Shown: positions 44,034 to 64,000 of the stretch, in pieces | Layout: each line of letters begins with the position of its first letter | Position numbering within the stretch: the stretch's first letter is position 1 | Assembly: GCF_007489275.1 (NCBI RefSeq) | Contig: NZ_VLNR01000033.1 | Location: forward strand, 1-64,000 | Source: Aquimarina algiphila | GTDB lineage: Bacteria > Bacteroidota > Bacteroidia > Flavobacteriales > Flavobacteriaceae | DNA: 64,000 bases | Direction of reading: 5' to 3' | Translations under genes and position numbers: made by a program | The notes under the pieces: model-generated | Seen by the model: the letters and a program-made list of their open reading frames with translations, nothing else | Databases searched by the model: none | Told to the model about the DNA's origin: nothing

Positions 44034-44181
44034 ACTTACTGCCCGATGCAAATCTAGCCGTTCGCCTTTGCGCTGTTGCAAGGCAAGCTGAAGAACACGC
44101 TTTACTATAACAGGTGAGGGACGGGCGCGTGTTGCCTTGCCTTTCCCTCCGCTGCGGCATTTGCTGGCATGTTCAGTAAGT
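44034..44181 (+). promoter_or_regulatory. Structured leader A ahead of the 44,240 gene
   Basis: Nested pairing: ACTTACTG (44034-44041) with CAGTAAGT (44174-44181), GCAAAT (44048-44053) with ATTTGC (44159-44164), and GCAAGGCAA (44078-44086) with TTGCCTTGC (44132-44140). It also contains TTGCAAGGCAAG, like the TTGCAARG motif of the other three leaders, and GGTGAGGG (44112 onward). Its 3-prime end is 58 nt from the start codon, further than in leaders B-D. Confidence 0.5.
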
Positions 44182-46503: not shown

Positions 46504-47859
46504 TGCATTTAAGACTTTAGGCATAGATAAATTAGAATGGTCAATTAATATACGCTCCCGTCCATTACCAAACTTCACTTTAACCGAATAAGGATAGGGC
46601 ATGGAGGATGATATAGGACTAAATATCACCTTCAACAATTCTTCAGCATTGGCAATAGCATCGTAATACACATTTGTGTCATCCCATGCTTGTTTCCGTA
46701 AAGATTTATTGATTCTGTAATTAATATCATTTAACTGGCTAGGGCCAATCTTGATTAACCAGCCATTATCTATATCTCTAATCTTAGTACTAACCTCATG
46801 AGAAACAATATGAGGTGTTGGGAGTTGTATCTTGATTTCTTGGGTCAGATGGTCAATCTTGAGTTCAAACCGTTCCATTAAATCGAAACCTAACTTAGTT
46901 GTAGCCTTAGAACTTGTTTGAGCTGTTGCTTCTGAGTCGAATATTGGTCCTTCTTTAACATAAGTAAATTTCTCATCTCCATATGTTATTACTTCTGCGG
47001 TTGCAAACTCAGCAATCTGATTGGTAACTTGTTTTTTTATACTTATTTTTAAATTATCATAATCCTTAATAATCCCTTTTTCTTTAAGTTTAACCAAATA
47101 AGGTCTGACCGCATATGATGCAACGTAAGGGCATACCTCCTTTGCTCCAGCTTGCATAAAAAATGTAGAATATTGATCAGCAACCGTTGCTTTCATAAAG
47201 ATGCTCACCACATCACATATCTGATCCCCAAGAACCGAATCAAAATTATTTAGCCCCTGAATGTTTCTTTTCGAGAAAATGGTTTTTTCTTTTTCCAGAT
47301 GAGTCTGCTTATTGAGATATGAAAGATGCTTATAGGCTACACGATTCATTTTATGACTTTCCTTTCTGTACATAGCCAGAATGTGATTTCTGTCCTTCTT
47401 CTCTAACTCAAAATTGTCGGAAAGAAATGTAAGGAGTTCCGTATTAATTGAATTCATAACCGTAGAAAACTCCTTATAGCTTCCATCAGAACCAGATGAA
47501 CCTACAGAAGCCACATTATCAATAATACGTGAGTAGTGTATAGTGGGTTTAAACTTGTATTTCAGTTTTTTAAATACTTCTTCTATTTTTAAAATGTCCG
47601 CATGTTTGGAATCAAACCCTCTGGCGAAACCTGTACTATCTCCCCTGTGAAAACCAAGGCTATCACCATACATTTGACCACGTTCGAATCCACTACTATT
47701 ACCCTTTAAGAATCCGTCATTATTTCCTCTCTGATACCCTGTTTCAAAAGCATCGGTAGATACTTTTTTTCCAATCAATACAAAAACTGCAATGATCAAT
47801 ACCAATATTACAAAAGCCCCTATAAAGAATTCCTTTTTCTTAAATTTTAATTGCTCCAT
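46486..47859 (-). CDS. Membrane-anchored DUF4230-like protein with Gly-rich repeats
   Basis: 457 residues. An N-terminal membrane segment (FFIGAFVILVLIIAVFVLI) precedes six to seven short repeats with pattern GxxxG/GF..G (GYQRGNNDGFLKGNSSGFERG, then GQMYGDSLGFHRGDSTGFARG; about residues 38-85). The long C-terminal part contains KLGFDLMERFELKI...QEIKIQLPTPHIVSHEV, which fits DUF4230. The bulk would face the periplasm. Function unknown; overlaps its convergent neighbour by 18 bp. Confidence 0.65.
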   Translation of the reverse strand: MEQLKFKKKEFFIGAFVILVLIIAVFVLIGKKVSTDAFETGYQRGNNDGFLKGNSSGFERGQMYGDSLGFHRGDSTGFARGFDSKHADILKIEEVFKKLKYKFKPTIHYSRIIDNVASVGSSGSDGSYKEFSTVMNSINTELLTFLSDNFELEKKDRNHILAMYRKESHKMNRVAYKHLSYLNKQTHLEKEKTIFSKRNIQGLNNFDSVLGDQICDVVSIFMKATVADQYSTFFMQAGAKEVCPYVASYAVRPYLVKLKEKGIIKDYDNLKISIKKQVTNQIAEFATAEVITYGDEKFTYVKEGPIFDSEATAQTSSKATTKLGFDLMERFELKIDHLTQEIKIQLPTPHIVSHEVSTKIRDIDNGWLIKIGPSQLNDINYRINKSLRKQAWDDTNVYYDAIANAEELLKVIFSPISSSMPYPYSVKVKFGNGRERILIDHSNLSMPKVLNASTFKG

Positions 47860-47891
47860 AACTCAAATATTTTATGTGAATAAACAACAAA

Positions 47892-47926
47892 ACCCCATAC
47901 TCAAATGACGAATTTGAATATGGGGT
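47892..47926. other. Hairpin between divergent genes
   Basis: ACCCCATAcTCAAAT / ATTTGAaTATGGGGT with one mismatch around GACGA. On the minus strand it is followed by a T-rich run, so it could act as an attenuator in the leader of the DUF4230-like gene. A similar CCCnnTAT...ATATGGGG hairpin lies at 51,832-51,866. Confidence 0.5.
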
Positions 47927-48038
47927 GGTGTATGTTAAGTATGAAATAAAAATACGTATATATTATTAATTAACAAAGGGTTAACTAAAAAATCAATCTA
48001 AACTCTCAGTATGGCACATACTTTGTAATATAACTGAT

Positions 48039-48317
48039 ATGAAAACAATGGAAGTCATATGTCTGGAATCACAAGCACTTTATATGCTGGTGGATAAGGT
48101 CGTTGAGCAGATCAAGGAGAAGCACAACGTCAAGGAAGATAAATGGATTTCCCCTACGCAAGCAATGCGCATACTCAATATCTCCAGTGATACCACATTA
48201 CAGAAACTACGCGATACTATGGAGATCGAATTTAGCCAACCATCACGCAAGATCATCCTATATGACAGGGATTCAATTTATGCCTATCTGGAACGTCACC
48301 GTAAAAAAGCACTCTGA
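48039..48317 (+). CDS. Excisionase-like helix-turn-helix protein
   Basis: 92 residues. A short N-terminal helix (LYMLVDKVVEQIKEK) is followed by a winged-helix/MerR-like DNA-binding domain (WISPTQAMRILNISSDTTLQKLRDTMEIEFSQPSRKIILYDRDSIYAYLERH). Proteins of this type act as Xis or regulators in Bacteroidota elements. Its stop overlaps the next start (TGATG). Confidence 0.85.
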   Translation: MKTMEVICLESQALYMLVDKVVEQIKEKHNVKEDKWISPTQAMRILNISSDTTLQKLRDTMEIEFSQPSRKIILYDRDSIYAYLERHRKKAL

Positions 48318-48577
48318 TGAAAAGCCTAGAAAAACGCGAAGAGGAACTATACGAAAAAGCATTTAACCACGGTTATTATACGCAACGTTATGAACCTGAA
48401 TTGGCTCAGAAGATTTCGGAAACCCCTCATGTTCATAATGTATATCTGCTCACCTTCAATGACGGACGAGAAGCCCGTCTCGAAGAAGTTAAAGAACAAC
48501 TGAAAGATTACCGGATTACTCCTGAAAACTTCTCCAAAAGCCAAGACAAAGACAGGGGAATGGATATTGACCGTTAG
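48317..48577 (+). CDS. Unknown small acidic protein, translationally coupled to the HTH gene
   Basis: 86 residues, no recognised domain (MKSLEKREEELYEKAFNHGYYTQRYEP). Its ATG overlaps the stop of the HTH gene, so the two are probably made together. Possibly a partner of the HTH protein. Confidence 0.7.
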   Translation: MKSLEKREEELYEKAFNHGYYTQRYEPELAQKISETPHVHNVYLLTFNDGREARLEEVKEQLKDYRITPENFSKSQDKDRGMDIDR

Positions 48578-49184: not shown

Positions 49185-49319
49185 TTTTTACGGTTTCTAA
49201 TGGCTTTAGGGTTGCAAAGATAAAGCCCAAGGATCCACACACCATTTCCTACGTCATGGCTTAGTGGATTCTTGGGCTTTGTGGGTTTTCGCATTAAACC
49301 ACATTAGAAACCGTAAAAA
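49185..49319 (+). promoter_or_regulatory. Structured leader B (nested hairpin RNA) ahead of the J-domain gene
   Basis: Outer stem: TTTTTACGGTTTCTAATG (49185-49202) pairs perfectly with 49302-49319, 18 bp. Inner stem: AAAGCCCAAGGATCCAC (49222-49238) pairs with GTGGATTCTTGGGCTTT (49264-49280), 17 bp with one G-U. Apical CCAT/ATGG pairing follows. A TTGCAAAGATAAAGCC motif lies between outer and inner stem. The 3-prime end is 9 nt from the start codon. Confidence 0.8.
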
Positions 49320-49328
49320 CATAACCTT

Positions 49329-49826
49329 ATGAATGTGTATGATGCAGCCAGAATACTAGGGCTAACAGGAGAAATAAACCCGAAAATTGTGAAGAAAGCA
49401 TTTCGGGAAGCGAGCAAAAAATATCACCCCGATGTGAATCCCGCAGGTGAAGAATTGATGAAAATGATCAATGAAGCCTATGAGGTGCTAAAAGACTATT
49501 CCGGTGAGAGTAAGGATGAACAGAGCAATTATAGTGATTTACTCAGTGAAGCACTTAACGCCATTATTCACCTCGACGATCTGATGATTGAGATATGCGG
49601 GGCATGGATCTGGATTACAGGCAATACCAAAGTCCACAAAACCGTGTTGAAAGAAGCGGGCTTTTATTGGGCCTCGAAAAAGAAAGCGTGGTATTTCCGA
49701 CCAGAAGCCTATCGCAGTAAACATAAAGGCAGTAAATCAATGGATCATATACGCACCAAATATGGTTCGGTAACACCAGCTCGTCACACCAATTCACATA
49801 AAACCTTAAAGCCCTATGACCGATAG
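49329..49826 (+). CDS. J-domain protein with a C-terminal WxWxxG-type domain
   Basis: 165 residues. A J domain (1-65) carries the HPD motif at residues 33-35 (SKKYHPDVNP) and calls for DnaK. After a linker, residues 90-155 contain WIWITGNTKVHKTVLKEAGFYW then KKKAWYFRP and DHIRTKYG, a domain I have seen in other phage- and element-borne proteins but cannot name. A DnaK adaptor for replication or another element process is possible. Overlaps the next gene by 11 nt. Confidence 0.85.
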   Translation: MNVYDAARILGLTGEINPKIVKKAFREASKKYHPDVNPAGEELMKMINEAYEVLKDYSGESKDEQSNYSDLLSEALNAIIHLDDLMIEICGAWIWITGNTKVHKTVLKEAGFYWASKKKAWYFRPEAYRSKHKGSKSMDHIRTKYGSVTPARHTNSHKTLKPYDR

Positions 49827-50313
49827 AGCGATATTAAATCAGGAATGGGATCGTCAGCTCGAAGAGATGTTGGCGAGTCCGAAGAACCGGCCTTATTATC
49901 GTGTATTAGCAAACCCTGAACGACTGATGGTTTATTACGGGTTTGCTAAACTCACTCCCAAAGTGATGCGCAAACATGAGCTGGTCATCATCTATGAAAA
50001 TGCCAATCACAACCCGATGAAGAATCTGGAATGGATCTTTCGTAAAACACATCTCGCCTATATCCGTGAACAGAGTGCTGAAGAACGACAAGCCGCTTCC
50101 ATGAGCAATCGTATGTTTACCAAATATGGGTATTTCATAGATGATAAGCCGTGGGATAGTAATATCGATATGGTACTCTCTGATAATTTTAGTGCGGATG
50201 AGAAGCACGTTTCACCCAGTGAACGTGAGCTCATCCGTGTCATGTTACGTGAAAAATATTTTGAGATATATGATACAAAACCAGTACATCAACTGGCTTT
50301 TATTTTTGCATAA
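49816..50313 (+). CDS. Unknown protein coupled to the J-domain gene
   Basis: 165 residues, mixed alpha/beta, no recognised motif (MTDRAILNQEWDRQLEEMLASPK, ERELIRVMLREKYFEIYDTKP). The ATG lies 11 nt before the J-domain gene stop, so it is co-translated and may be that protein's client or partner. Confidence 0.7.
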   Translation: MTDRAILNQEWDRQLEEMLASPKNRPYYRVLANPERLMVYYGFAKLTPKVMRKHELVIIYENANHNPMKNLEWIFRKTHLAYIREQSAEERQAASMSNRMFTKYGYFIDDKPWDSNIDMVLSDNFSADEKHVSPSERELIRVMLREKYFEIYDTKPVHQLAFIFA

Positions 50314-50318
50314 AAAAA

Positions 50319-50339
50319 GGTGTAGTTAGGGGCTACACC
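50319..50339. terminator. Hairpin after the J-domain operon
   Basis: GGTGTAG / CTACACC, 7 bp. A run of A to the left gives a U-tract on the minus strand; the plus-strand tail is weaker. A second hairpin (TTACGGT / ACCGTAA, 50,403-50,419) follows. Confidence 0.55.
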
Positions 50340-50457
50340 AATTACTCTACTGTGTTTACGTTAAGGGTAATCCCCCAATTTTTACATTTTGACAACACAA
50401 TATTACGGTTTTACCGTAACAATTCCAAATCATGTAAGGTGATTTCATTGAATAGAT

Positions 50458-50578
50458 GAATAATGCGGTTTGAGTCTGCAAGGATAAGGCCGGTTCTCCA
50501 AATGCCATTTCGCTTCACTCATGGCGTATTGGACAACAGCCCTTTAGTAGAGATGTGGCAAATCAAACCACATTATTC
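50458..50578 (+). promoter_or_regulatory. Structured leader C (nested hairpin RNA) ahead of the 50,597 gene
   Basis: Outer stem GAATAATGCGGTTTGA (50458-50473) with TCAAACCACATTATTC (50563-50578), 15 of 16 pairs (one C.A). Inner motif TGCAAGGATAAGGCC, then TCCAA/TTGGA and TGCCAT/ATGGCG pairing around the loop TTCGCTTCACTC. The apical part is nearly identical to leader D. The AAACCACATTA of the 3-prime arm is shared with leader B. Confidence 0.8.
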
Positions 50579-50596
50579 ACTATTAAATTTTATACA

Positions 50597-50950
50597 ATGA
50601 AACAAAATCAAGAACAACCCAAGTACCACACGACCCTGAAAAACACCAAAGGGTTTGGCTGGAAAGCGAAAACGATTGTGAAAGACATTCTAGGCTATGA
50701 CTGGAACATTACCACATTAAAGATGAGTTCTGGAAAGATTAGCTGTACTGCGCAAGCGGGAACACTAAAAGACAATGATGGCTACGAATCATTCAGCTTT
50801 ATACTCTTTCAAGACCCGCTTATCCGACTCTATGATGAGAAACGACGTGCCACAGAAAAAGCCGTGGAAGAGGTTCACGACAAGGGACTGGCGAAATTTA
50901 CTGAACTCCTAAACACAGGAAAAATCACTTCCAGAGATGAAAACGAATAA
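50597..50950 (+). CDS. Unknown small protein, paralogue family member 1
   Basis: 117 residues from the ATG at 50597, after leader C (an earlier in-frame ATG at 50555 lies inside the leader and is not used). Conserved with two other genes of the element: YDWNITTLK, CTAQAG, SFILFQDP, RRATEKAVEEVHDKGLAKF. No known domain. Compact alpha+beta. It overlaps the zinc-ribbon gene by 14 nt. Confidence 0.75.
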   Translation: MKQNQEQPKYHTTLKNTKGFGWKAKTIVKDILGYDWNITTLKMSSGKISCTAQAGTLKDNDGYESFSFILFQDPLIRLYDEKRRATEKAVEEVHDKGLAKFTELLNTGKITSRDENE

Positions 50951-51116
50951 TCGTAGAACCGTCCGTTATATGCATTCACTGGCATTTATGACCTGTGATT
51001 GTGGAAGTGAAATGACTCTGGCCCAGACCATAGCGGGTGATCCTGTCTATCGTGGCAGTTGTGAATGTGGAAAGCACTTCGTATTATTTAATAATCAAAT
51101 TGTCAGAACACGATGA
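50937..51116 (+). CDS. Zinc-ribbon mini-protein, 59 residues
   Basis: MKTNNRRTVRY... with TCDCGSEMTL and SCECGKHFVL: two CxC-G knuckles, the form of a small zinc ribbon. ATG at 50937 lies in the end of the preceding gene; the TGA (51114-51116) overlaps the next ATG (51113) as ATGA. These overlaps on both sides support a real gene in a translationally coupled operon. Possible nucleic-acid-binding role. Confidence 0.7.
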   Translation: MKTNNRRTVRYMHSLAFMTCDCGSEMTLAQTIAGDPVYRGSCECGKHFVLFNNQIVRTR

Positions 51117-51514
51117 AACAGCAACAATTTCCTATAGAAACTTCACATAAGGATTGTGTGAACCGTAATTTACTTGGATGGCATCGACAGACTATCATCT
51201 ATGACATTTCCGGCTGTGACTGGAATATTGAAACCTATAAACGGGAAGGAGCTATACGGTGCTGTGCCAGTATGGGATATGCCAACCCCGAAGACGGTAT
51301 ATTATTTATCCCTACTAATCGACCATTACTACGGCTTCATTGGGAGCGGCGTTATTGTACCAAGAAGGCTGTAATAGAAGTCCATGAAGCGGGAATCAAA
51401 CGCTTTGACCTGATAGTAGCATCCGGATTGATTCGTGTTCCTCAATATATCAAGGATTGGGTGAGAAACGAGAAACTGCGTGTGGATATAAAGCGCTATG
51501 CTAGTAACTCATAA
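51113..51514 (+). CDS. Unknown small protein, paralogue family member 2
   Basis: 133 residues. Same family as the 50,597 and 61,517 genes: CDWNIETYK, RCCASMG, then KKAVIEVHEAGIKRF. It diverges from the others in the middle (LFIPTNRPLLRLHWERRY instead of SFxxFQDP) and has a basic 25-residue C-terminal tail. ATGA-coupled to the zinc-ribbon gene. Confidence 0.75.
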   Translation: MKQQQFPIETSHKDCVNRNLLGWHRQTIIYDISGCDWNIETYKREGAIRCCASMGYANPEDGILFIPTNRPLLRLHWERRYCTKKAVIEVHEAGIKRFDLIVASGLIRVPQYIKDWVRNEKLRVDIKRYASNS

Positions 51515-51524
51515 ATCTATCATT

Positions 51525-51758
51525 ATGAAACGCTATTTTAATATTCAGCTAAAATGGATTGATGATGGTATAGTGGCTAGTGCTTTAGTCACTGACTATG
51601 ATGATTATGAGGACGTTGATAATACCACTGAGACTGATAAGGATGTAGAAATATTCTGGTTTGGAATCAGTGAAACACAGATTCAACACCATATCAAAAC
51701 AGGAGAACCCGTTTGCAATCAATTTATGATTCTGGATTACGAAGAACTGGAGTGGTAA
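51525..51758 (+). CDS. Unknown acidic small protein
   Basis: 77 residues from the ATG at 51525 (MKRYFNIQLKWIDDGIVASALV), with an Asp/Glu-rich centre (DYDDYEDVDNTTETDKDVE). I prefer this start over the ATG at 51498 because it lies after the previous stop and has the CATTATG context seen at other genes here. Strongly acidic proteins of this size are often DNA mimics, but there is no specific evidence. Confidence 0.65.
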   Translation: MKRYFNIQLKWIDDGIVASALVTDYDDYEDVDNTTETDKDVEIFWFGISETQIQHHIKTGEPVCNQFMILDYEELEW

Positions 51759-51831
51759 CAGTAGTATTATTAACATTTAATTGGCAGAAATAACCAATTA
51801 AACCATTAATTTTAAAATACTTAAAGTAAAC

Positions 51832-51870
51832 AACCCTGTATGCAGATCGTCATCTGTATATGGGGTTTTT
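51832..51870 (+). terminator. Intrinsic terminator of the 50.6-51.8 kb operon
   Basis: CCC / GGG, CAGAT (51843-51847) / ATCTG (51852-51856) around CGTC, then TTTTT. Ends the operon of paralogue 1, zinc ribbon, paralogue 2 and the acidic protein. Confidence 0.75.
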
Positions 51871-51898
51871 CTATGTTTAACTCTTAAAACCAAAGATC

Positions 51899-52489
51899 AT
51901 GAAAGCAAAAACCAATTGGAGTTCCCAATTTTCAAAAGACCCTGAGGACAGCTTCATCAAGTATATTCGTCAACTTAATGATGAGGGGTGTTTTGATATT
52001 ACTATTCTATCAGACTTCATTAAAGAAGAAGATGATGATGAAGCATTTAAGATATTGTTAAGGGGGTTTAAAAAAGAACATAAAGCTAAAGAAATCCATT
52101 CTCCTGAACTAAAAAAAGGATATCCATGGCCAAAAATAAGAAAATCACCATCCTTTATAATGGAAATCGCTGAACTAATTGCTGAACAAAAATACATCAA
52201 AAAACTGCGAGAAAAATTGAGTGCAATTACACAACCCTTAAATTACGACCATATGAAAAACACCAAAAAAAATAACAGGCAACATTTAATGATTTTTATG
52301 CTGTTACTCGCCATATCCATCACGATATGTGCTGTAACACTTAATTACACAGATAGTGCGGACACGCAAATCACCATTGAATATAATGTGGGCGAAATTA
52401 TAGCTGCCATATTAGCTGGGGCAGGCATATCGAGTGCAGGAATTGCTTATGCAGCAAAAACCATTAAAGACATGAATAAGGAAGAATAA
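51899..52489 (+). CDS. Unknown protein with two C-terminal membrane segments
   Basis: 196 residues. Residues 1-115 are charged and helical and begin MKAKTNWSSQFSKDPEDSFI; two hydrophobic stretches follow (LMIFMLLLAISITICAVTL and IIAAILAGAGISSAGIAYAA). The cytoplasmic domain first, then a membrane hairpin. No recognised family. Confidence 0.7.
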   Translation: MKAKTNWSSQFSKDPEDSFIKYIRQLNDEGCFDITILSDFIKEEDDDEAFKILLRGFKKEHKAKEIHSPELKKGYPWPKIRKSPSFIMEIAELIAEQKYIKKLREKLSAITQPLNYDHMKNTKKNNRQHLMIFMLLLAISITICAVTLNYTDSADTQITIEYNVGEIIAAILAGAGISSAGIAYAAKTIKDMNKEE

Positions 52490-52496
52490 ACAATTA

Positions 52497-53105
52497 TTAC
52501 ATTACTTCATTATCACTGAACGATAGTATGTTCAATCGTTCGATTAGATTACCCCGCTTATCGTTTTCTTCTTCCCAATCGCCATATTGTTCAGGATGCC
52601 ATTGCCCCGTTTGTTTATGACCACTGATATGCCCGTTAAGTTGTTTGGTACTGCTAAATGACTTATGGCATTTCGGGCAACGATAAGGCTTTAACTCTAT
52701 TTCTATGTGATTTGCTTTAAGTACATCGAATGTATTAGGCTTTTCTTCTTTTTCATCGGCTTCAGGTTGCGATTTGGTAGCATAGAATAAATGGCTGAAG
52801 GAGAAAATCGTTCCCGATAACATCACTGCAATCAGTATCGCACTATAGATGCTATTCGGATAAAATTGATATACGACATTATGCGCGATGGTTCCAAACA
52901 AATAAATAAATGCCGTTTTCTTCCAGCCCTTTACCGTAAATATCAATATCGCCAGATCAACCCCGATCGCATAAAACCACGCAAAGAATGGATCATCATA
53001 TTGGCTATTCACCTTGAAGACATACACAGTATGTGCCACTTGCGGAATCAATATGATCGTCAGTGCCAGAATTCCAAACCATTCCTGTGTGATAATCCGT
53101 TTCAT
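52497..53105 (-). CDS. Four-segment membrane protein with a C-terminal classical C2H2 zinc finger
   Basis: 202 residues from the ATG at 53105 (the frame opens at 53135). About four membrane segments in residues 8-108, then a charged linker and CPKCHKSFSSTKQLNGHISGH: C143-x2-C146-x12-H159-x3-H163 with the F and L core positions of a TFIIIA-type finger. Bacterial C2H2 fingers of this form are rare (the Ros/MucR type is different). A short acidic tail follows. Function unknown. Confidence 0.8.
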   Translation of the reverse strand: MKRIITQEWFGILALTIILIPQVAHTVYVFKVNSQYDDPFFAWFYAIGVDLAILIFTVKGWKKTAFIYLFGTIAHNVVYQFYPNSIYSAILIAVMLSGTIFSFSHLFYATKSQPEADEKEEKPNTFDVLKANHIEIELKPYRCPKCHKSFSSTKQLNGHISGHKQTGQWHPEQYGDWEEENDKRGNLIERLNILSFSDNEVM

Positions 53106-53248
53106 TGTCGTGATATTACACAATGAACACCTCAACCATTATGCCGTAAACACCCTTATTTACTAGGCTGGCTGCATATGAATCCATCTGGTTTTATATG
53201 GGAAAAGTTTTTTCTTAAAGCTTCACGAACAACTAAAAATGTTTTATA

Positions 53249-53266
53249 ATACAACTATAATTGTAT
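53249..53266. promoter_or_regulatory. Inverted repeat at the toxin-antitoxin promoter
   Basis: ATACAA, six bases, TTGTAT, overlapping a TATAAT box (53245-53250), 14 bp ahead of the antitoxin ATG. Autoregulation by antitoxin binding is typical. Confidence 0.5.
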
Positions 53267-53279
53267 ATAAGAGGTAAAT

Positions 53280-53555
53280 ATGTTTTCTACATCAGATGTT
53301 CATACCGTAACAGAGTTTTTCCGGAACCCTTCAGACCATATCAAACGGTTATCGATCAGTAAAAAACCAGAAGTGCTTACCCTGAATGGAAAAGCAGCTA
53401 TCGTCGTACAGGATGCAGCCAGTTATGAACGAATGGCTGAACTGGCCGATTATGCGGAAAGTTTAATGCAGGTGAAACAGGCATTATCTGAAGAAGGAAG
53501 GCCCATTGAAACATTTACCCAAGAGTTTGAGAAAGATAATGGAATTACGCGATGA
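53280..53555 (+). CDS. Type II antitoxin, Phd/YefM family
   Basis: 91 residues. HTVTEFFRNPSDHIKRL and KPEVLTLNGKAAIVVQDAASYERM match the Phd/YefM DNA-binding fold; the C-terminus would wrap the toxin. An AGAGGT ribosome-binding sequence precedes the start. Overlaps the toxin gene by 4 nt. Confidence 0.88.
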   Translation: MFSTSDVHTVTEFFRNPSDHIKRLSISKKPEVLTLNGKAAIVVQDAASYERMAELADYAESLMQVKQALSEEGRPIETFTQEFEKDNGITR

Positions 53556-53854
53556 AAAGTTATATCGTTCAGATAAAACCTTCTGCTGAACTGGATATTA
53601 CTACCCGTTATCATCAGATCAAAGAATCTTCTGAACAAGATGCTATTAATTGGTATTTAACCATTATCAAAACTATTGAATCACTGGATCAGTTAGCTGA
53701 ACGTTGTCCTTCTGCTCCAGAAAGTGAACATGTGGCTCAAGATATTCGGCATCTGATAATTGGTCATTATCGAGTGTTATTTTCTATTGAAGAAACCAAT
53801 GTCCATATTTTACATGTAAGACATTCCGCTATGAGCAGAGAGCAGTCGCTATAA
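53552..53854 (+). CDS. Type II toxin, RelE/ParE superfamily
   Basis: 100 residues: MKSYIVQIKPSAELDITTRYHQI...YRVLFSIEETNVHILHVRHSAMS, the ParE/RelE fold with the final HVRH-type strand. RelE-type ribonuclease or ParE-type gyrase inhibition cannot be separated here. Stabilises the element in the host. Confidence 0.88.
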   Translation: MKSYIVQIKPSAELDITTRYHQIKESSEQDAINWYLTIIKTIESLDQLAERCPSAPESEHVAQDIRHLIIGHYRVLFSIEETNVHILHVRHSAMSREQSL

Positions 53855-53974
53855 AATGAAGTTGGTTACTGGACTGTATCATTCGGTCACTGCGAAGAGT
53901 GACATTGTGCCTATGGCAAGTTTGTTTCATTCTACTTCAAAAGGGCAAAAAAGTTAAGGCTGAAATTCGATTGA

Positions 53975-54000
53975 GGTGAGGGGGCTGTTGCCCCCTTATC
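53975..54000 (+). terminator. Terminator-like hairpin, family T3 copy 1
   Basis: GGTGAGGGGGC, loop TGTT, GCCCCCTTATC: 11 pairs including wobbles, between the toxin gene and a convergent gene. The GGTGAGGGG arm recurs at 61,458 and 63,913. Confidence 0.65.
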
Positions 54001-54001
54001 T

Positions 54002-54286
54002 TTAGCCATTCAGATCATACACCACCACATCATTGCTTGGTGTACCTAATTTGTGCATTACTTCAAGTTTTTCAGGAGTAGTATAGCATTGCGCTATACC
54101 GCTTTTTTCATCTTCCGCACTGACCTCTATAAACTCGGAAAATGTAGTTCCCTTATTGTCTTCATTTAACGTTGTCTTGAACACGATACATTCCATCGGA
54201 TAATCGTCAGGTTCTACCATAAAAATCTCTGAAACATTTGTTTTTAGATGATGTTCCAGTGTTTCTTTAATCTGATGATTCAACAT
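54002..54286 (-). CDS. Unknown small acidic protein with a strong ribosome-binding site
   Basis: 94 residues from the ATG at 54286, beginning MLNHQIKETLEHHLKTNVSEI. AAAGGAGGT lies 9 nt upstream on the minus strand, an almost perfect Shine-Dalgarno sequence, and decides this start over the one at 54337. No recognised domain. Such a site is unusual for Bacteroidota. Confidence 0.7.
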   Translation of the reverse strand: MLNHQIKETLEHHLKTNVSEIFMVEPDDYPMECIVFKTTLNEDNKGTTFSEFIEVSAEDEKSGIAQCYTTPEKLEVMHKLGTPSNDVVVYDLNG

Positions 54287-54450
54287 CGTTTCATACCTCC
54301 TTTGGACAAACTGTTTTCTACTAATTTTATATAGCATATTACTGGAGATATAGCGAGTAAAAAAGTACCAAAATTAGCAGAAATATAAGGCTTGTAGCTT
54401 ATTTACGAGCTTCGACAAATTTGCATATATGGTGATCGTATTTTGTGTCC

Positions 54451-54569
54451 GACAAACGGTTTTTTGAGCTTGCAAGGCTAATACCAAAAGCGCAAATGCC
54501 ATTTCGTTTCACTCATGGCGTATTGCCCTCTTTGGTATTGATTAAACGGGCAAATAAAAACCATTTGTC
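54451..54569 (+). promoter_or_regulatory. Structured leader D (nested hairpin RNA) ahead of parB-like gene 1
   Basis: Outer stem GACAAACGGTTTTT (54451-54464) with AAAAACCATTTGTC (54556-54569), one C.A mismatch at the position mismatched in leader C. Inner stem AATACCAAA (54480-54488) / TTTGGTATT (54531-54539), then GCAA/TTGC and TGCCAT/ATGGCG around TTCGTTTCACTC. CTTGCAAGGCTAA precedes the inner stem. It ends 20 nt before the start codon. Confidence 0.8.
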
Positions 54570-54589: not shown

Positions 54590-56347
54590 ATGGAAACCAT
54601 TAAAAAGAAATCCACTCGTAAACGAACACCTAAGAAGGCTGTTAATGCAAAAACTTCTGTTACTGAAGGGCTGCAAAAAGTGCCTTTATTCTCGCTTGCG
54701 GTGAGTGGTAACAATCCGCGTAAACAATTTAACGAGGAGGAAATTGCCGAGCTTGCACAGAGTATCAAGGAAAATGGCGTATTACAGAATCTTGTCGTGA
54801 CCGAGTATGAGAAAGAGGATCACTACACGATCATTGCTGGAGAACGTCGTTTTATGGCATTGAAACATCTGGTCGAACAAGGTGAGATCGATGAAAGCTA
54901 TCCAGTGCCGGTTACTGTCAGGTTGCAACAATCCGACGATGATTGTTTGCGTTTAGCCGTCATTGAAAATGTACAACGCAAACGCATGCATCCGCTAGAT
55001 GAAGCCGAAGCCTTTTTTACACTGACTCGCAAAGGCGTGGATTTGGAAACCGTATCCTCACAATCGGGCCTCAGTATTAACACCATAAAACGGCGATTGC
55101 TGCTGCATAACCTGATTGATGATGCTAAGGCGCAATATCGAGGTGGAAGCTTAAAATTGTCACAGGCTGAAGCCATAGGTCGCGCGAATGATGATGATCA
55201 GAAAGATGTTTTAGACCGTATTCATAGTGGCTGGGAAATGGATGCAGAAGAAATTAATGATTATCTGATTGCTGATAAGCCCAATGTGGCTATGGCGAAG
55301 TTTGATCTGAGTAAATACACCGGAACGATTACAACCGATTTGTTTGGTGAGGATAAAGACAGCTTCTTTGATGATGTCGATCAATTTGAACGATTACAGG
55401 ATGAAGCAGTCGAAGCATTGGAAGCCGAATATGTCTTTAAGTCCGATGTGCCTTGGGTTGAAGTGATACGAGGATATAACTTTGAGCGATGGCGCTATGA
55501 CAATGCCAAAGAAGGCGAGAAAGGCGGTGCCGTGATCCTTTATCAACCAGATGGTGAGGTGGATATCATTGAAGGCTTGATAAAAAAGGTTGAAGAAAAG
55601 CCGGTTGTTTCTGCTGAAGAACCTACTGCAGAAACAACTACTACTGACAAACAAGAAAAACGCTCATTATCCGCCTACACAAAAACGGCTTATGAATATG
55701 TAGCCAATCATAAAACGGTATCCTTACAGAATGTACTAGCCCTCAATATCCGAAAGGCTAAAGAGATTGATATATTGCAGCGTTTAGGTTTGGGTCGAGA
55801 GGTGAGCATTGGATGGCATCAAGCTAACCGATTCCAATCAGATGATAACAAGCATAAGTCAGTAGGTGTCTTAGGAATGGAAGTATTACTCACTGAAATA
55901 CAGACTTTGCTCGATATGGACTGGAAAACTGAACTCTACTATCATCGTGATTATGCTAAAATTTATGCAAGGCTGAAAACGCTGACCGATGTGGAATTGG
56001 ATAAGCTATTATCCATATTGATAGCAATGAGTTTTGGTCAGGAAACATTTCAGCATGAAGAACCGAAAGACAGTTTGTTTAATACCATAGGTCGTGATCT
56101 GGAAGTGAGGGTACGTGATTACTGGAAACCCGATAACGATTTCCTGAATATGCACCGAAAAGACCAATTACTTGCTATGAGTTTAGCATCAGGAGCAGCG
56201 AAAGGTCGGTACTTTGACCGATTGAAGAAATCTGAATTGGTCAGTGAGTTGAATAACTACTTCACCAATGAGGAACCACTCACGGATGTGGAGCAGGAAT
56301 TTATAAAGCAAAATTATTGTCCGGTGATTATGCAGTTTGATGAGTAG
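54590..56347 (+). CDS. ParB-like protein 1
   Basis: 585 residues. A ParB/RepB/Spo0J N-terminal domain (SGNNPRKQFNEEEIAELAQSIKENGVLQNL, IAGERRFMAL, ENVQRKRMHPLDEAEAF, a KorB/HTH-type QSGLSINTIKRRLLL). The remaining 350 residues are specific to this family and end SLFNTIGRDLEVRVRDYW...KKSELVSELNNYF. It is a full-length paralogue of the 62,240 gene. No ParA gene is adjacent, so regulation or another role is possible instead of partition. Starts without a Shine-Dalgarno sequence, after leader D. Confidence 0.9.
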   Translation: METIKKKSTRKRTPKKAVNAKTSVTEGLQKVPLFSLAVSGNNPRKQFNEEEIAELAQSIKENGVLQNLVVTEYEKEDHYTIIAGERRFMALKHLVEQGEIDESYPVPVTVRLQQSDDDCLRLAVIENVQRKRMHPLDEAEAFFTLTRKGVDLETVSSQSGLSINTIKRRLLLHNLIDDAKAQYRGGSLKLSQAEAIGRANDDDQKDVLDRIHSGWEMDAEEINDYLIADKPNVAMAKFDLSKYTGTITTDLFGEDKDSFFDDVDQFERLQDEAVEALEAEYVFKSDVPWVEVIRGYNFERWRYDNAKEGEKGGAVILYQPDGEVDIIEGLIKKVEEKPVVSAEEPTAETTTTDKQEKRSLSAYTKTAYEYVANHKTVSLQNVLALNIRKAKEIDILQRLGLGREVSIGWHQANRFQSDDNKHKSVGVLGMEVLLTEIQTLLDMDWKTELYYHRDYAKIYARLKTLTDVELDKLLSILIAMSFGQETFQHEEPKDSLFNTIGRDLEVRVRDYWKPDNDFLNMHRKDQLLAMSLASGAAKGRYFDRLKKSELVSELNNYFTNEEPLTDVEQEFIKQNYCPVIMQFDE

Positions 56348-56371
56348 GTAGCAATTCTGAGAATATGATGA

Positions 56372-56401
56372 GGCGGGTTGATGTGTCAGCTCGCCTTTTT
56401 T
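56372..56401 (+). terminator. Intrinsic terminator, family T1 copy 1
   Basis: GGCGGGTTGA / TCAGCTCGCC, 10 pairs, loop TGTG, then TTTTTT. The loop and stem are repeated after two further genes. Confidence 0.9.
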
Positions 56402-56407
56402 AGTGTA

Positions 56408-57765: not shown

Positions 57766-57793
57766 AAGGAATAGCGCCAATAATGATTTCGAA

Positions 57794-57822
57794 GGCGGGT
57801 TGATGTGTCAGCTCGCCTTTTT
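57794..57822 (+). terminator. Intrinsic terminator, family T1 copy 2
   Basis: GGCGGGTTGA, loop TGTG, TCAGCTCGCC, then TTTTT: same bases as the copy at 56,372. Confidence 0.9.
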
Positions 57823-57920
57823 GATTGCTGTATCTAGAGGGGAAAATAGACCTAAAACATCAAGGTATTTAACCATTAATAAAGGGAGTATTCCCTGTAA
57901 TTAGCTGTGTTGTTTTAGTA

Positions 57921-58439: not shown

Positions 58440-58474
58440 GCGAGTTGATTGATGTGTCAGCTCGCCTTTTTTGT
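58440..58474 (+). terminator. Intrinsic terminator, family T1 copy 3
   Basis: GGCGAGTTGA, loop TTGATGTG, TCAGCTCGCC, then TTTTTT. The loop carries an extra TTGA and one stem base has changed to keep a Watson-Crick pair (A-T instead of G-T). Confidence 0.9.
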
Positions 58475-58479
58475 TTCAT

Positions 58480-60525: not shown

Positions 60526-60596
60526 TGATATATCTCCGTAGATTGACCTAAGATATAGCAGTATAGATTGTAAATGACCATAAGGTTATGGCACAT

Positions 60597-60973
60597 CAGA
60601 AGAGAATCTTCTGAGCGTGCTCTATTCGCTGGTCGGATCCGTTTGCCGGATTAGACCAGCTTACCGAACCTCTCTTAGTTTCGGCCCATACGAGTAACGA
60701 TCACTTGTAATATGAAATAAGGCTAGTTGTGTTTGATGTTCTTGAATGAATGATCAAACCTCTCTGGCGATCCGACTGTGAAGGACAGTCGCTCCGCAAT
60801 AATTAATGGTATTTTTTTAAGCGTCTACTAGCCGTCATAAGCCTCTGTTCGGTTCATCTCGTACTCCCTTCCCATCGAATAAAAAAAGACAATTAATTCC
60901 CGCTACGGGTTGGACAATTCATCCGCTTCGGCGACAAGGTTTTGTCGCCCCAAAAAAAATATGTTTTGGGGCG
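60597..60973 (+). ncRNA. Structured non-coding region before ssb (candidate RNA or origin)
   Basis: No gene in 60,526-61,070, but many hairpins: CAGAAGA/TCTTCTG (60597-60613), GCTGGTC/GACCAGC (60628-60660), GTTTGAT/ATCAAAC (60731-60769), CGACTGT/ACAGTCG (60773-60791), CCCG/CGGG (60899-60909), then GGCGACAA/TTGTCGCC (60930-60949) overlapping CGCCCCAAAA/TTTTGGGGCG (60946-60973). Two GACAATT(A/C)AT repeats (60,889; 60,913) are also present. Confidence 0.45.
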
Positions 60974-61070
60974 CAATGACAAGGGTTCTTAGAGATAAGC
61001 AACTACTGAGCAAGCCGAAACATCCTCTGCGAGAGCAGGGAGCTAACCATTAACTAAAGGAGTAAATACT

Positions 61071-61445
61071 ATGTCTATCGTAACTAACACAAATAACTTT
61101 GTACAACTAACAGGCAATATTACTAAAGATGTGGAAAGCATCACTACCAAGAATGGAACCCAGTTAAGCAAGTTTACTATCGCAATCAATAAAACTGTCA
61201 TTAATGGCAATGGTGAAACGGTTAGCAAACCATCCTATGTAGATGTATGTGCATGGGGCGATGTGGGCATTGCTACTAAAGACCTCAAGAAAGGGGATCG
61301 TGTGCAATTGCAAGGTGATCTAGTCGGTAATGAGAAATCAACCGGAGCCAATGGCAAGACTTACTATAACACCTATGTCAATGCAGAAACCATCCTGAAC
61401 ATTACCCCAAAATCTGCGAACGAATCCGAGACAGCAAATAACTAA
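61071..61445 (+). CDS. ssb: Single-stranded DNA-binding protein
   Basis: 124 residues, OB fold: NNFVQLTGNITKDVESITTKNGTQLSKFTIAINK, VDVCAWGDVGIATKDLKKGDRVQLQGDLVGNE, YNTYVNAETILNITPK. Lacks a DDDIPF-type tip; the tail is short (SESETANN), so interaction with host partners may be reduced. AAAGGAG 8 nt upstream gives a clear ribosome-binding site. Coats ssDNA during transfer or replication of the element. Confidence 0.9.
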   Translation: MSIVTNTNNFVQLTGNITKDVESITTKNGTQLSKFTIAINKTVINGNGETVSKPSYVDVCAWGDVGIATKDLKKGDRVQLQGDLVGNEKSTGANGKTYYNTYVNAETILNITPKSANESETANN

Positions 61446-61457
61446 TTCCATCCTAAA

Positions 61458-61481
61458 GGTGAGGGGCGTTAGCTCCTTACC
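61458..61481 (+). terminator. Terminator-like hairpin, family T3 copy 2
   Basis: GGTGAGGGGC, loop GTTA, GCTCCTTACC (10 pairs with wobbles) directly after ssb. Followed by CCTCAACAC as at 63,940. Confidence 0.65.
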
Positions 61482-61516
61482 CAACCTCAACACACAATTT
61501 TATGGAGTAAGAGAAA

Positions 61517-61843
61517 ATGACGAATACATATGAAACAGAAATTACTAGAGATGCTTATAAAAAACTAGAAGCAAGAACAATGGTCAATAATATCAATGAT
61601 TACGATTGGCTTATTTCAACCTACAAAAATGATAGAGGGCAAATAGTTTGTAACGCACAAGCTTGTGAAGAAACCGAAACGGGATTCTCGTTTGTAATGT
61701 TTCAAGACCCCTCGGTTACGCTTTGTCAGGTTCAAAAGAGAGCTACGGAAAAAGCGATTAAAGAAGTGCATGACATGGGCTTGATAGAATTTGATAAGCT
61801 CATTACTTCCAGTGAATTGCCTACACGTTCATTAAGCGTATAG
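61517..61843 (+). CDS. Unknown small protein, paralogue family member 3
   Basis: 108 residues: YDWLISTYK, IVCNAQACEE, GFSFVMFQDP, KRATEKAIKEVHDMGLIEFDKL. Closest to the 50,597 protein. A GGAG sequence 9 nt upstream supports the start. Unlike member 1 it has no structured leader. Confidence 0.78.
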   Translation: MTNTYETEITRDAYKKLEARTMVNNINDYDWLISTYKNDRGQIVCNAQACEETETGFSFVMFQDPSVTLCQVQKRATEKAIKEVHDMGLIEFDKLITSSELPTRSLSV

Positions 61844-61852
61844 GGGGCAATC

Positions 61853-62170
61853 ATGAGCATACAACAATTTATAGATCATCAAATCACTATGAACATGTCG
61901 CCATTTATCGGCTTGTTAGATTCGATAGATAGTGAAGCACTTCCAAACGAATATGTAGAGTTAATTTCTCATAGTGATGTAGACGGTGAGCCAGTAGAGA
62001 TTCTGGAATATTGGGGCGTAAGCGAATGGTTAGCCCTTCAACTCCAAGGCAGGAAAGAAGCCGTTTCTATGAATTTTAACGGTATGCCGACTTGGGGAAG
62101 AACCACCAGCGGCCAAGCTATCAAATTGGATAGTGTCATACGCGACATTTACCAAGAGCATTACGCTTAA
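61853..62170 (+). CDS. Unknown small acidic protein
   Basis: 105 residues (MSIQQFIDHQITMNMSPFIGLLDSIDSE), 9 nt after paralogue 3, so co-transcribed. GGGG just before the start acts as a weak ribosome-binding site. Predicted alpha/beta; no recognised domain. Confidence 0.7.
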   Translation: MSIQQFIDHQITMNMSPFIGLLDSIDSEALPNEYVELISHSDVDGEPVEILEYWGVSEWLALQLQGRKEAVSMNFNGMPTWGRTTSGQAIKLDSVIRDIYQEHYA

Positions 62171-62239
62171 TTTCTAACAGGTTCGGGGGAGCCTTTAATT
62201 TCTCCACTTTTTTCAACGTCATTATAAGGAGTAAACACA

Positions 62240-63901
62240 ATGACAGTAAAAACTATACCACTATCAGAAATCGTTTCTAACCATAACAATCCACGCACTA
62301 CATTCAATGAAGAATCCATTGAACAACTGGCACAAAGCATCAAACAAGATGGAGTCTTGCAAAACCTCATTGTGAAGCCAGTCGAAGGAGGATATGAAGT
62401 AGTAGTTGGTGGTCGAAGATTGCGCTCGCTTCGCTTGCTGCTTGAGCAAGGTGAGATCAATAGCAACTTTTCGGTTCCTGTGCGGATTCAGGATAATCAG
62501 CCAGATAATGACAATTTAAGAATTGCCGTTGTAGAAAATGTGCAGCGTGAACAAATGCACCCGCTCGATGAAGCCGAAGCATTCTTGAAATTAACCCAAG
62601 AAGGCGTTGATCTCAAAGAAGTGGCAGCTCAATCCGGTGTATCTATTTACTTTATGAAACGTCGTCTATTACTTGGTAATCTGATTGATGATTCAAAGAC
62701 TGCTTATCGGGAAGAAAAAATCAGTTTATCGGCTGCGGAAGCTTTGGCAATGGGCAATGCTGAAGATCAAAAATTGCTGTTAGAACGGCTAAATGATGGT
62801 TATGTGCTGAATCCGCACAAGATTAGAAATATGCTACTCTGTGATAAGCCCAGCGTTTCTATTGCTCTGTTTGACAAAGAAAAATACACTGGCTCTATTA
62901 CCGCCGATCTATTTGAAGCTGAAGATAACACCTATTTCGATGATGTGGGGCAGTTTAACGAATTACAGGACGAAGCCGTTGAGAAATTAATGCAAGATTT
63001 GGAAAACGACCCCGATGTGGACTGGGTAGGCATCGAACGTGACGATCATTTTGAGCATTGGCGTTATGACGAGGCAGAAGAAGGCGAAAATGGTGGTGTG
63101 ATGATTCATTACCGTCTGGACGGGAATGTGGAAATATACAGAGGACTGGTTGTCCGTGAGAACACGAAAACCCTTGATGATTCTAAACCCAAAGAACGCC
63201 CTGAATTTACTCAGAAAGCCTATGGTTATTTTGCGAATCAGAAAACTATTCTGGCGCAACAAGCCATTACGAAGAATATTCGCAAGGCAAAAGAAATCGA
63301 TGTGCTGCAACGTATCAATCTGTTCAGAGATGCTAATATTAAAACGCATCAGGCAATCAAATCCTTATCCGGTGAACAGAAAGACAGCGCAGAATGTGAA
63401 TTGCTTACACAAATCGAACAGGATTTAATGGAGTTTCTAGGTATAGAGCTGAAAGATCGCTGGTATGTGTTTGATAGTTGGGGAGTGAATCGTTCTGCAT
63501 ACTATGAAGCCGTAAAGTCACTAACTGACGAGCAACTAGATCAACTCTTTGTGTTACTGGTAGCCATCAGTTTCGGAAAAGAAGTAACAACACGTGAGGA
63601 AACCAGAGATAGCCTGTTTTATCTATTTGCCAATGATCTGGATATTACCCCACGTGATGGTTGGACTCCAAACGAGGAATTTTTCAAGCTGCATAAAAAA
63701 GACCAGTTACTTGCCATAGCAGAAGCGTGCGGTGCATCCATTGGTAAGCAATTATATAAACTCAAACGCAAAGATTTGATTGCTGAATTGGTTGCATATT
63801 ATGCCAATAGCAACCCCTTACAGAATGAAGCGCAACAAGCATTGAAAGACTCATTCTGTCCGCGTTTGATGCAGTTTGAAGCCGAAGCATCCGAGGCATA
63901 A
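62240..63901 (+). CDS. ParB-like protein 2
   Basis: 553 residues, full-length paralogue of the 54,590 protein: SNHNNPRTTFNEESIEQLAQ, VVGGRRLRSLRLLLEQGEI, ENVQREQMHPLDEAEAF, QSGVSIYFMKRRLLLGNLIDD. The C-terminal half also aligns (SLFYLFANDLDITPRDGW, KRKDLIAELVAYY). In contrast to copy 1 it has no nested hairpin leader and has an AAGGAG 8-9 nt before the ATG. No ParA gene in the window. Confidence 0.9.
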   Translation: MTVKTIPLSEIVSNHNNPRTTFNEESIEQLAQSIKQDGVLQNLIVKPVEGGYEVVVGGRRLRSLRLLLEQGEINSNFSVPVRIQDNQPDNDNLRIAVVENVQREQMHPLDEAEAFLKLTQEGVDLKEVAAQSGVSIYFMKRRLLLGNLIDDSKTAYREEKISLSAAEALAMGNAEDQKLLLERLNDGYVLNPHKIRNMLLCDKPSVSIALFDKEKYTGSITADLFEAEDNTYFDDVGQFNELQDEAVEKLMQDLENDPDVDWVGIERDDHFEHWRYDEAEEGENGGVMIHYRLDGNVEIYRGLVVRENTKTLDDSKPKERPEFTQKAYGYFANQKTILAQQAITKNIRKAKEIDVLQRINLFRDANIKTHQAIKSLSGEQKDSAECELLTQIEQDLMEFLGIELKDRWYVFDSWGVNRSAYYEAVKSLTDEQLDQLFVLLVAISFGKEVTTREETRDSLFYLFANDLDITPRDGWTPNEEFFKLHKKDQLLAIAEACGASIGKQLYKLKRKDLIAELVAYYANSNPLQNEAQQALKDSFCPRLMQFEAEASEA

Positions 63902-63911
63902 ACTACTTCAC

Positions 63912-63940
63912 AGGTGAGGGCGTAACCTATGCCTTCACCT
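63912..63940 (+). terminator. Terminator-like hairpin, family T3 copy 3
   Basis: AGGTGAGGGC, loop of nine bases, GCCTTCACCT: 10 pairs, then ATTTTTT (63951-63957). Follows parB-like 2. The last 60 bp of the window show no gene start. Confidence 0.7.
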
Positions 63941-64000
63941 CAACACTACCATTTTTTAACAACCCCTATGTGAATGCGTTTTGGTGGCAAATGTAGCGCC

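What the first reader, a model, noticed from the sequence alone, without database searches (positions are those of the whole stretch)
49185..54569. A family of nested hairpin leader RNAs on a mobile element
Leaders at 49185-49319, 50458-50578 and 54451-54569 each have a long outer stem, a TTGCAARG-type motif, a long inner stem and an apical CAT/ATG hairpin, and each ends 9-20 nt before a start codon (J-domain gene, paralogue 1, ParB-like 1). Outer-stem sequences differ between copies yet still pair, while inner motifs such as TGCCAT...ATGGCG are shared. Changing arms with kept pairing point to selection on RNA structure. I know of no named RNA class that fits. The control signal could be an element protein.
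Basis: partly seen in the sequence, partly recalled or inferred. Interest (0 to 1): 0.78.

Follow-up and report, generated by a model that had tools for sequence, protein, structure and literature searches.

The report
Hairpin promoters for single-stranded plasmid DNA
Three hairpins upstream of genes on a mobile element look less like RNA switches than like start signals that work only while the DNA is single-stranded, which would let an incoming element of the Bacteroidota phylum switch on its first genes at once.

Summary
The three hairpins are real (DNA fold z -8.2, -5.7, -4.4); the fourth proposed copy (44034-44181) is not (z -0.4). No Rfam family matches. Read on the other strand, the "TTGCAARG" motif is TAnnYTTGCA, the Bacteroidota -7 promoter box, lying between the two stems, 18-19 nt after GAAATKG in the apical stem (about the -33 position). 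If the minus strand folds as single-stranded DNA, RNA polymerase leaving the hairpin base would transcribe the downstream gene; in duplex DNA the box points away from it. I read these as single-stranded-DNA promoters, working like Frpo of plasmid F but with Bacteroidota boxes.

The same core (apical motif, N18-19, -7 box) occurs in Aquimarina and Arenibacter/Flagellimonas plasmids. A model scan found a further copy in another genus, 3.5 kb from that genome's only PF03432 relaxase hit. In the 8 copies examined the box lies 97-113 nt before an ATG, and no sense-strand TAHHTTTG lies within 290 nt.

Against: one copy points the wrong way; several fold weakly; wobble evidence for the strand is absent in the window copies; the transferred strand is inferred; nothing is experimental.

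The parts
49185..49319 (-). hairpin W1, predicted single-stranded-DNA promoter for the J-domain gene
   Evidence: DNA fold z -8.23; model R1 52.4 bits (R1 was built with this sequence)
49215..49222 (-). -7 box TATCTTTG of W1 between the stems (perfect TAHHTTTG)
   Evidence: box defined in PMC6847099 and PMC9723704 (passages)
49242..49244 (-). TGG near the -33 position of W1 (spacer 19), in the apical stem
   Evidence: position inferred from the -12..-5 register
49329..49826 (+). J-domain gene, 165 aa
   Evidence: Pfam DnaJ E 3.9e-12; relatives in 2,689 plasmid records
50456..50580 (-). hairpin W2, predicted single-stranded-DNA promoter for the gene starting at 50597
   Evidence: DNA fold z -5.72; model R1 54.8 bits (training sequence)
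50479..50486 (-). -7 box TATCCTTG of W2 (one change from TAHHTTTG)
50505..50507 (-). -33 position of W2 (TGG), spacer 18
50597..50950 (+). gene of unknown function downstream of W2; no Pfam hit at E 0.01 (frame searched from 50555)
54451..54569 (-). hairpin W3, predicted single-stranded-DNA promoter for ParB1
   Evidence: DNA fold z -4.36; model R1 53.1 bits (training sequence)
54473..54480 (-). -7 box TAGCCTTG of W3 (two changes from TAHHTTTG)
54499..54501 (-). -33 position of W3 (TGG), spacer 18
54590..56347 (+). ParB1 (ParB_N and HTH_ParB)
   Evidence: Pfam ParB_N E 1.3e-18
61071..61445 (+). SSB gene, of a kind known from leading regions; no family hairpin found upstream
   Evidence: Pfam SSB E 2.7e-17
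62240..63901 (+). ParB2, 45% identical to ParB1; no family hairpin found upstream

Best explanation
The hairpins are single-stranded-DNA promoters for early genes of a conjugative element. During conjugation the minus (transferred) strand enters the recipient as ssDNA and folds. The apical stem presents the -33 region and the inner stem an 18-19 bp spacer, both double-stranded. Between the stems lies the -7 box TAnnYTTG on the non-template 3' arm, with the region from about -11 to +1 held open or only weakly paired. Host RNA polymerase with the Bacteroidota primary sigma factor starts at the base of this loop, leaves through the outer stem and copies the ssDNA 5' of the hairpin, giving mRNA with a 5' UTR of about 34 nt for the J-domain, 50597 and ParB1 genes before a second strand exists. 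In duplex DNA the hairpin is absorbed and the box points away from the gene. Shown: anatomy, boxes, spacing, strand of the box, recurrence in other elements. Inferred: which strand is transferred in the window, use by polymerase, start site, switch-off in duplex DNA.
For: Folds of W1-W3. A detector that asked only for a TAnnTTTG box in a nested fold with a gene start at its base found two hairpins, each in both the Arenibacter and Flagellimonas plasmids; they proved to carry the window's apical motif at the same 18-nt spacing, which the detector did not ask for. Core MATGAG-loop-CGAAATKG-N17-19-TANNYTTGC with up to 3 mismatches, 18 held sequences, 615,727 bases, both strands: 11 hits, 7 exact, 4 with two mismatches, none with 1 or 3. 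Model R1: 11 sites at 44-63 bits, next 17.4, in 21 sequences of 676,634 bases (all 11 are its 8 training sequences or their 3 Flagellimonas copies, so only the gap counts). New copy found by R1 in another genus: 39.4 bits, fold z -5.06, 113 nt from an ATG, 3.5 kb from the only PF03432 hit, which lies on the gene's strand. In the 8 copies examined the box is 97-113 nt before an ATG; sense-strand TAHHTTTG within 290 nt in 0 of 8 (0.13 expected by chance per gene). Strand carrying the box: G.T 16 versus A.C 6 over 8 hairpins; relatively more stable in 10 of 14 (Wilcoxon p 0.03, copies not independent). Apical pair C-G in 4 and A-T in 4 of 8. Gene context: SSB, ParB, helicase-methyltransferase and, on a contig that probably adjoins, a MOBF relaxase.
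Against: Copy L068:27356-27408 minus (= L067:43872-43924 plus) lies on the strand not expected to be transferred, before a 34-aa ORF. Aq1 and Aq2 fold no better than shuffles (z 0.21, -0.85) and Ar1, Ar2, Ar3 weakly (-1.61, -2.17, -1.79). Aq1 is far from its plasmid's leading region; Aq2 precedes only a 25-aa unannotated ORF; the start of the G1032 gene is ambiguous. Wobbles in W1-W3 alone are 3 G.T to 3 A.C, several of the other alignments score no better than shuffled arms, and W1 is slightly more stable on the other strand. W2, W3 and the new copy deviate from TAHHTTTG; the -33 match in W1-W3 is TGG. Permuted-motif control not significant: TAnnTTTG 4 of 128 sites (0.031), two permutations have higher fractions (0.032, 0.033). 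R1 found nothing above 17.4 bits in seven other Bacteroidota plasmid records (L070-L076), so the family is narrow. Window oriT not identified. No transcription data.
Confidence: 0.75

Rival explanations
1. Structured leader RNAs (plus strand) that regulate translation or termination of the downstream genes.
For: Plus-strand RNA folds are stable (z -9.46, -5.33, -4.38); stems keep pairing while sequence changes; position just before start codons; wobbles in the window copies do not favour either strand.
Against: The conserved loop motif is a -7 box on the other strand; no sense-strand TAHHTTTG within 290 nt upstream of the 8 genes examined (W2 has one at 296 nt, at the end of the preceding gene; weaker promoters were not sought); over all hairpins wobbles and stability lean to the strand with the box; no Rfam match.
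Confidence: 0.13
2. Single-strand initiation or protein-binding sites on the transferred strand (priming of second-strand synthesis, or an element protein binding the hairpin), with the promoter likeness secondary.
For: Conserved apical loop ATGAG..CGAA beyond what promoter boxes need; Frpo of F is described as serving transcription and priming (title of Masai and Arai 1997, seen in the reference lists of PMC11541004 and PMC9849209; paper not held).
Against: A near-constant distance to start codons (97-113 nt in 8 copies) and several copies per element fit gene expression better.
Confidence: 0.08
3. Duplex-DNA operators or cruciforms bound by an element regulator.
For: Inverted repeats near genes are common operator forms (general knowledge).
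Against: Nested arms of unrelated sequence around a conserved loop and a fixed 18-19 nt spacing are unusual for operators (inference).
Confidence: 0.04

Closest known systems
Frpo1/Frpo2 (ssi) single-stranded promoters of plasmid F and the ColIb-P9 ssi promoters
   Same: Template-strand hairpins in the leading region, upstream of ssb and other early genes, that rebuild promoter boxes in folded ssDNA (PMC9849209 and PMC11541004, passages read). F has ssb, one small ORF, ParB-like; the window has ssb, two small ORFs, ParB2.
   Different: Boxes are -33/-7 (TAnnTTTG) of the Bacteroidota sigma factor instead of -35/-10; the -7 box lies between the stems; W2 has no blastn match at E up to 1 in 72,556 plasmid records; R1 has no hit at E up to 5 in the F stretch 48-68 kb.
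Frpo-like candidates in anti-defence islands (Samuel et al. 2024, PMC11541004)
   Same: Repeated hairpins before leading genes on the T-strand.
   Different: Found by BLAST to known Frpo or by the sigma-70 -35/-10 consensus (passages), so that search was not built to see -33/-7 hairpins; words starting 'bacteroid' do not occur in its main text.
Flavobacterial sigma-A promoters (TTTG / TAHHTTTG)
   Same: Same -7 box at -12 to -5 (PMC9723704, PMC6847099, passages read).
   Different: Those are duplex promoters reading toward the gene; here the box reads away from the gene in duplex DNA.

Membership tests
Frpo/ssi single-stranded-DNA promoters | non-coding hairpin formed by the transferred strand directly upstream of early genes | tested here: inconclusive
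   hairpin upstream of genes: met in W1-W3 and the new copy, weak in Ar1-Ar3, not met in Aq1, Aq2. That this strand is the transferred one is inferred.
Frpo/ssi single-stranded-DNA promoters | folded strand rebuilds the promoter boxes of the host polymerase, pointing to the gene | tested here: met
   -7 box on the template strand at 97-113 nt from an ATG in the 8 copies examined (copies were chosen for the core, so the presence of the box is by selection and only its distance and strand to the gene are informative); -33 TTG in Ar1, Ar2, Ar3, Aq2 and the new copy, TGG in W1-W3 and Aq1. Sequence level only; polymerase use not tested.
Frpo/ssi single-stranded-DNA promoters | located in the leading region, genes transcribed toward oriT | tested here: inconclusive
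   gene order and relaxase position fit for Aq2, Ar1, Ar2 and G1032, but no oriT was mapped; Ar3 has the other orientation and Aq1 is distant.
Frpo/ssi single-stranded-DNA promoters | nucleotide similarity to known Frpo | tested here: not met
   W2 (161 bases) has no blastn match at E up to 1 in 72,556 plasmid records, a collection that holds F. W1 and W3 were not searched.
Frpo/ssi single-stranded-DNA promoters | transcription from ssDNA but not duplex DNA | not testable with these tools
   needs in vitro transcription or mating assays
Named RNA leader or riboswitch families | match to an Rfam model | tested here: not met
   0 matches at gathering score in the whole window
Structured leader RNA | sense-strand promoter upstream of the hairpin | tested here: inconclusive
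   no TAHHTTTG within 290 nt of ATG in the 8 genes examined; weaker or more distant promoters not excluded

The most novel reading that the evidence does not exclude
Bacteroidota conjugative elements carry their own class of single-stranded-DNA promoter, built on -33/-7 boxes, in which the folded strand offers a ready-opened transcription bubble (about -11 to +1) between two stems. It is unrelated in sequence to Frpo, so the strategy would have arisen separately from the sigma-70 kind. A second, sequence-unrelated hairpin class in the Aquimarina plasmid would be another design.
Probability: 0.62. Interest if true: 0.82.

Novelty: new variant of a known kind. Interest (0 to 1): 0.72.

Why it matters
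Early expression from incoming ssDNA has been shown for plasmid F (PMC9849209, passages). If it also operates in Bacteroidota with their different promoter code, it predicts which genes an incoming element switches on first and gives a sequence signature (model R1) for finding such regions. It also offers a natural test of how a sigma factor with a weak -33 element uses a pre-opened -7 region.

Tried and rejected
Rfam scan: nothing. Named genome scan with GCCATGAN{3,10}GAAATGGN{15,22}TANNYTTGCA: 4 stretches; I read one, L012, and its match lies in an ORF; the other three were not inspected. Viral contigs with a looser core: 61 stretches, listed with flanks and judged chance by eye; they were not folded. 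Order scan of 395 genomes with that core: 2 matches in the window (W1 does not fit the exact pattern), 1 each in G417 and G442, taken as chance; control columns 0 in the rows printed. Phylum scan with R1: 20 matches outside the own genome at E up to 0.1, none above 32.5 bits; 10 of the 20 were folded, as held and not always in match orientation, and judged chance by eye; 10 were not looked at. R1 gave nothing above 17.4 bits in L070-L076. J-domain homologues in the class (11 of 295 genomes, own included): of the 13 foreign loci I listed the ORFs of two, L018 and L020, which are other gene settings. The Legionella plasmid region upstream of its J-domain gene folds (z -3.35) but was not analysed further. 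Generic hairpin-plus-TAnnTTTG detector with 29 permuted motifs: not significant, and it missed the window copies. R1 was also run on G1032 sequence L167 alone (one hit). Literature: 17 papers hold Frpo and 'leading region'; I opened two of them and read passages only.
Full report
What is there. Three nested hairpins at 49185-49319 (W1), 50456-50580 (W2) and 54451-54569 (W3) precede the J-domain gene, a gene of unknown function and ParB1. They fold far better than shuffles as DNA or RNA. No Rfam model matches.

Strand. The loop motif reads TATCTTTGCA, TATCCTTGCA and TAGCCTTGCA on the minus strand. The -7 box of the primary sigma factor in flavobacteria is TAnnTTTG at -12 to -5 (PMC9723704, passages), refined to TAHHTTTG with a weak -33 element in F. 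johnsoniae (PMC6847099, passages); TAnnTTTG/TTTG is quoted for Bacteroides in PMC2483708 (passages). In W1-W3 the T at -12 is the last pair of the inner stem and the outer stem begins 13-15 nt after it, so about 12-14 nt lie between the long stems; the energy models put a few small pairs there in each copy. The box follows GAAATKG of the apical stem after 18 nt (W2, W3) or 19 nt (W1), so with spacer 18 the bases TTG or TGG fall at -33 to -31. In duplex DNA this promoter would read to lower coordinates, away from the genes. In folded minus-strand ssDNA the 3' arm is the non-template strand and the 5' arm, continuous with the genes' template, is copied. The inner ends of the outer 5' arms (49295, 50563, 54556, my reading; in W1 the innermost pairs are imperfect) lie 34 nt before the start codon in each case.

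Element. ParB1 and ParB2 (45% identical), SSB and a helicase-methyltransferase gene lie on the plus strand. The last gene is split: contig C199 ends and contig C253 begins inside what look, by eye, like the istA and istB genes of an IS21 element, and the two gene halves hit one gene of the Aquimarina sp. TRL1 plasmid (71.1% and 64.3% identity), so the contigs probably adjoin. Beyond is a MOBF relaxase (TrwC E 3e-61) on the minus strand. Strong inverted repeats at C253:1276-1405 may be oriT or a terminator. With oriT there, the minus strand would be the transferred strand; this is inference.

Relatives. A detector that asked for TAnnTTTG in a nested fold with a gene start at its base found two hairpins, each in both the Arenibacter pSMS7 and Flagellimonas plasmids. 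Both carry the window's apical motif 18 nt before the box, which the detector had not asked for. A scan for MATGAG-loop-CGAAATKG-N17-19-TANNYTTGC with up to 3 mismatches over 615,727 bases gave 11 hits, 7 exact and 4 with two mismatches: W1-W3; Aquimarina Aq1 (L065 2313 minus) and Aq2 (L064 10167 minus); Arenibacter Ar1, Ar2, Ar3 and the same three in Flagellimonas. Ar1 precedes an N-6 DNA methylase gene, Ar2 a JAB-domain gene. A covariance model of the 52-position core (8 sequences) scores these 44-63 bits, the next hit 17.4; all 11 are training sequences or their copies, so only the gap counts. The phylum scan (395 genomes) found nothing convincing outside the own genome. The family scan (118 genomes) found one new copy, G1032:C12:163181-163233, 39.4 bits. 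This copy, not used in training, has N18, TGATTTTGC, a strong nested hairpin (z -5.06), an ATG 113 nt from the box, and lies 3.5 kb before the genome's only PF03432 hit, on the gene's strand. I chose that ATG inside an ORF whose mechanical start is further upstream, so the start is not certain.

Tests between DNA and RNA. For 8 copies (W1-W3, Ar1, Ar2, Aq1, Aq2, G1032; Ar3 left out) the box lies 97-113 nt before an ATG on the template strand, and TAHHTTTG occurs on the sense strand within 290 nt in 0 of 8 (0.13 expected per gene by chance; W2 has one at 296 nt). The copies were chosen for the core, so the presence of the box is not itself evidence here; its distance, its strand relative to the gene and the lack of a sense box are. 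Arm alignment that scores Watson-Crick pairs only gave 10 G.T against 1 A.C on the box strand in outer stems and 6 against 5 in inner stems (8 hairpins, Ar3 included, G1032 not). The lean comes from the plasmid copies: W1-W3 alone give 3 against 3, and the arms of Aq1, Aq2 (outer), Ar1 and Ar2 (inner) align little better than shuffled ones. Corrected for shuffles the box strand is the more stable in 10 of 14 hairpins (Wilcoxon p 0.03, copies related); W1, Ar3, Aq1 and Aq2 go the other way. The apical stem has one clear compensatory pair (C-G in 4, A-T in 4 of 8), on an alignment not fitted to structure.

A second class. In the same Aquimarina plasmid five longer hairpins precede genes starting at 16276, 17518, 18068, 19358 and 20501 in an array that runs toward mobC and the relaxase at 23.4-27.8 kb. 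21 of 61 predicted pairs have changes on both sides in at least one of 5 sequences. The 3' loop holds TATCTTTG in one copy, TACATTGC in another, degenerate forms in three. Their own fold z-scores are weak (-0.6 to -2.2). Arenibacter and Flagellimonas also have very large hairpins before ssb and parB with TATATTTGCC on the template strand in a weakly paired stretch.

Against. Ar3 sits on the strand not expected to be transferred. Aq1 and Aq2 fold no better than shuffles, Ar1-Ar3 weakly. Aq1 is not near its oriT side, and Aq2 precedes only a 25-aa unannotated ORF. The permuted-motif test was not significant (4 of 128 sites, two loci; 29 permutations gave 0-3, two with a higher fraction). SSB and ParB2 of the window have no family member upstream, and seven other Bacteroidota plasmid records have none.

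Known ground. Frpo1/2 of F and the ColIb-P9 promoters are described as working this way with -35/-10 boxes (PMC9849209, PMC11541004, passages). W2 has no match in 72,556 plasmid records. Searches: 'Frpo'+'leading region' (17 papers, two opened); 'ssDNA promoter'+'Bacteroidota' (0); 'single-stranded promoter'+'Frpo'+'Bacteroid' (1 review, not opened); 'leading region'+'Bacteroidota'+'conjugative'+'promoter' from 2022 (1, not opened); a looser one (25 papers, 15 listed, listing only). None of the titles and abstracts shown reports such promoters in Bacteroidota; the library lacks most subscription papers.

Verdict: single-stranded-DNA promoters, a new variant of a known kind.

Noticed in passing
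L009:1940-3051 and L059:1-397: An IS21-like element (named by eye) splits the helicase-methyltransferase gene and breaks the assembly; both halves match one Aquimarina plasmid gene.
   Followed up: partly
L064:16075-20492: Five long hairpins of a second class, with pairs changed on both sides, upstream of leading-type genes in the Aquimarina plasmid.
   Followed up: partly
L067:46268-46560 and 47850-48395; L068:22799-23430 and 24701-25013: Very large GC-rich hairpins before ssb and parB with TATATTTGCC on the template strand.
   Followed up: partly
L068:27356-27408 minus, L067:43872-43924 plus: A family member in the opposite orientation, before a 34-aa unannotated ORF.
   Followed up: partly
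60576-60705: Best-scoring 130-nt minus-strand fold of window 41-64 kb, about 370 nt upstream of ssb, without a TAnnTTTG box.
   Followed up: no
60980-64000: The ssb to ParB2 block shows Shine-Dalgarno-like AAAGGAG/AAGGAG before two starts (by eye), unusual for Bacteroidota (recalled; cf. PMC6847099 abstract).
   Followed up: no
56371-56405, 57793-57827, 58442-58476: Three copies (94% and 77% identical to the first) of a repeat with TTGATGTGTCAGCTCGCC and a T-rich tail after genes, terminator-like.
   Followed up: no
49329-49826: The J-domain gene has relatives in 2,689 plasmid records; the most frequent genera are Escherichia, Klebsiella, Enterococcus and Acinetobacter, the best listed match 55.6% in Legionella.
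   Followed up: partly
53280-53854: Two overlapping small ORFs resembling an antitoxin-toxin pair by eye; no family search was run on them.
   Followed up: no
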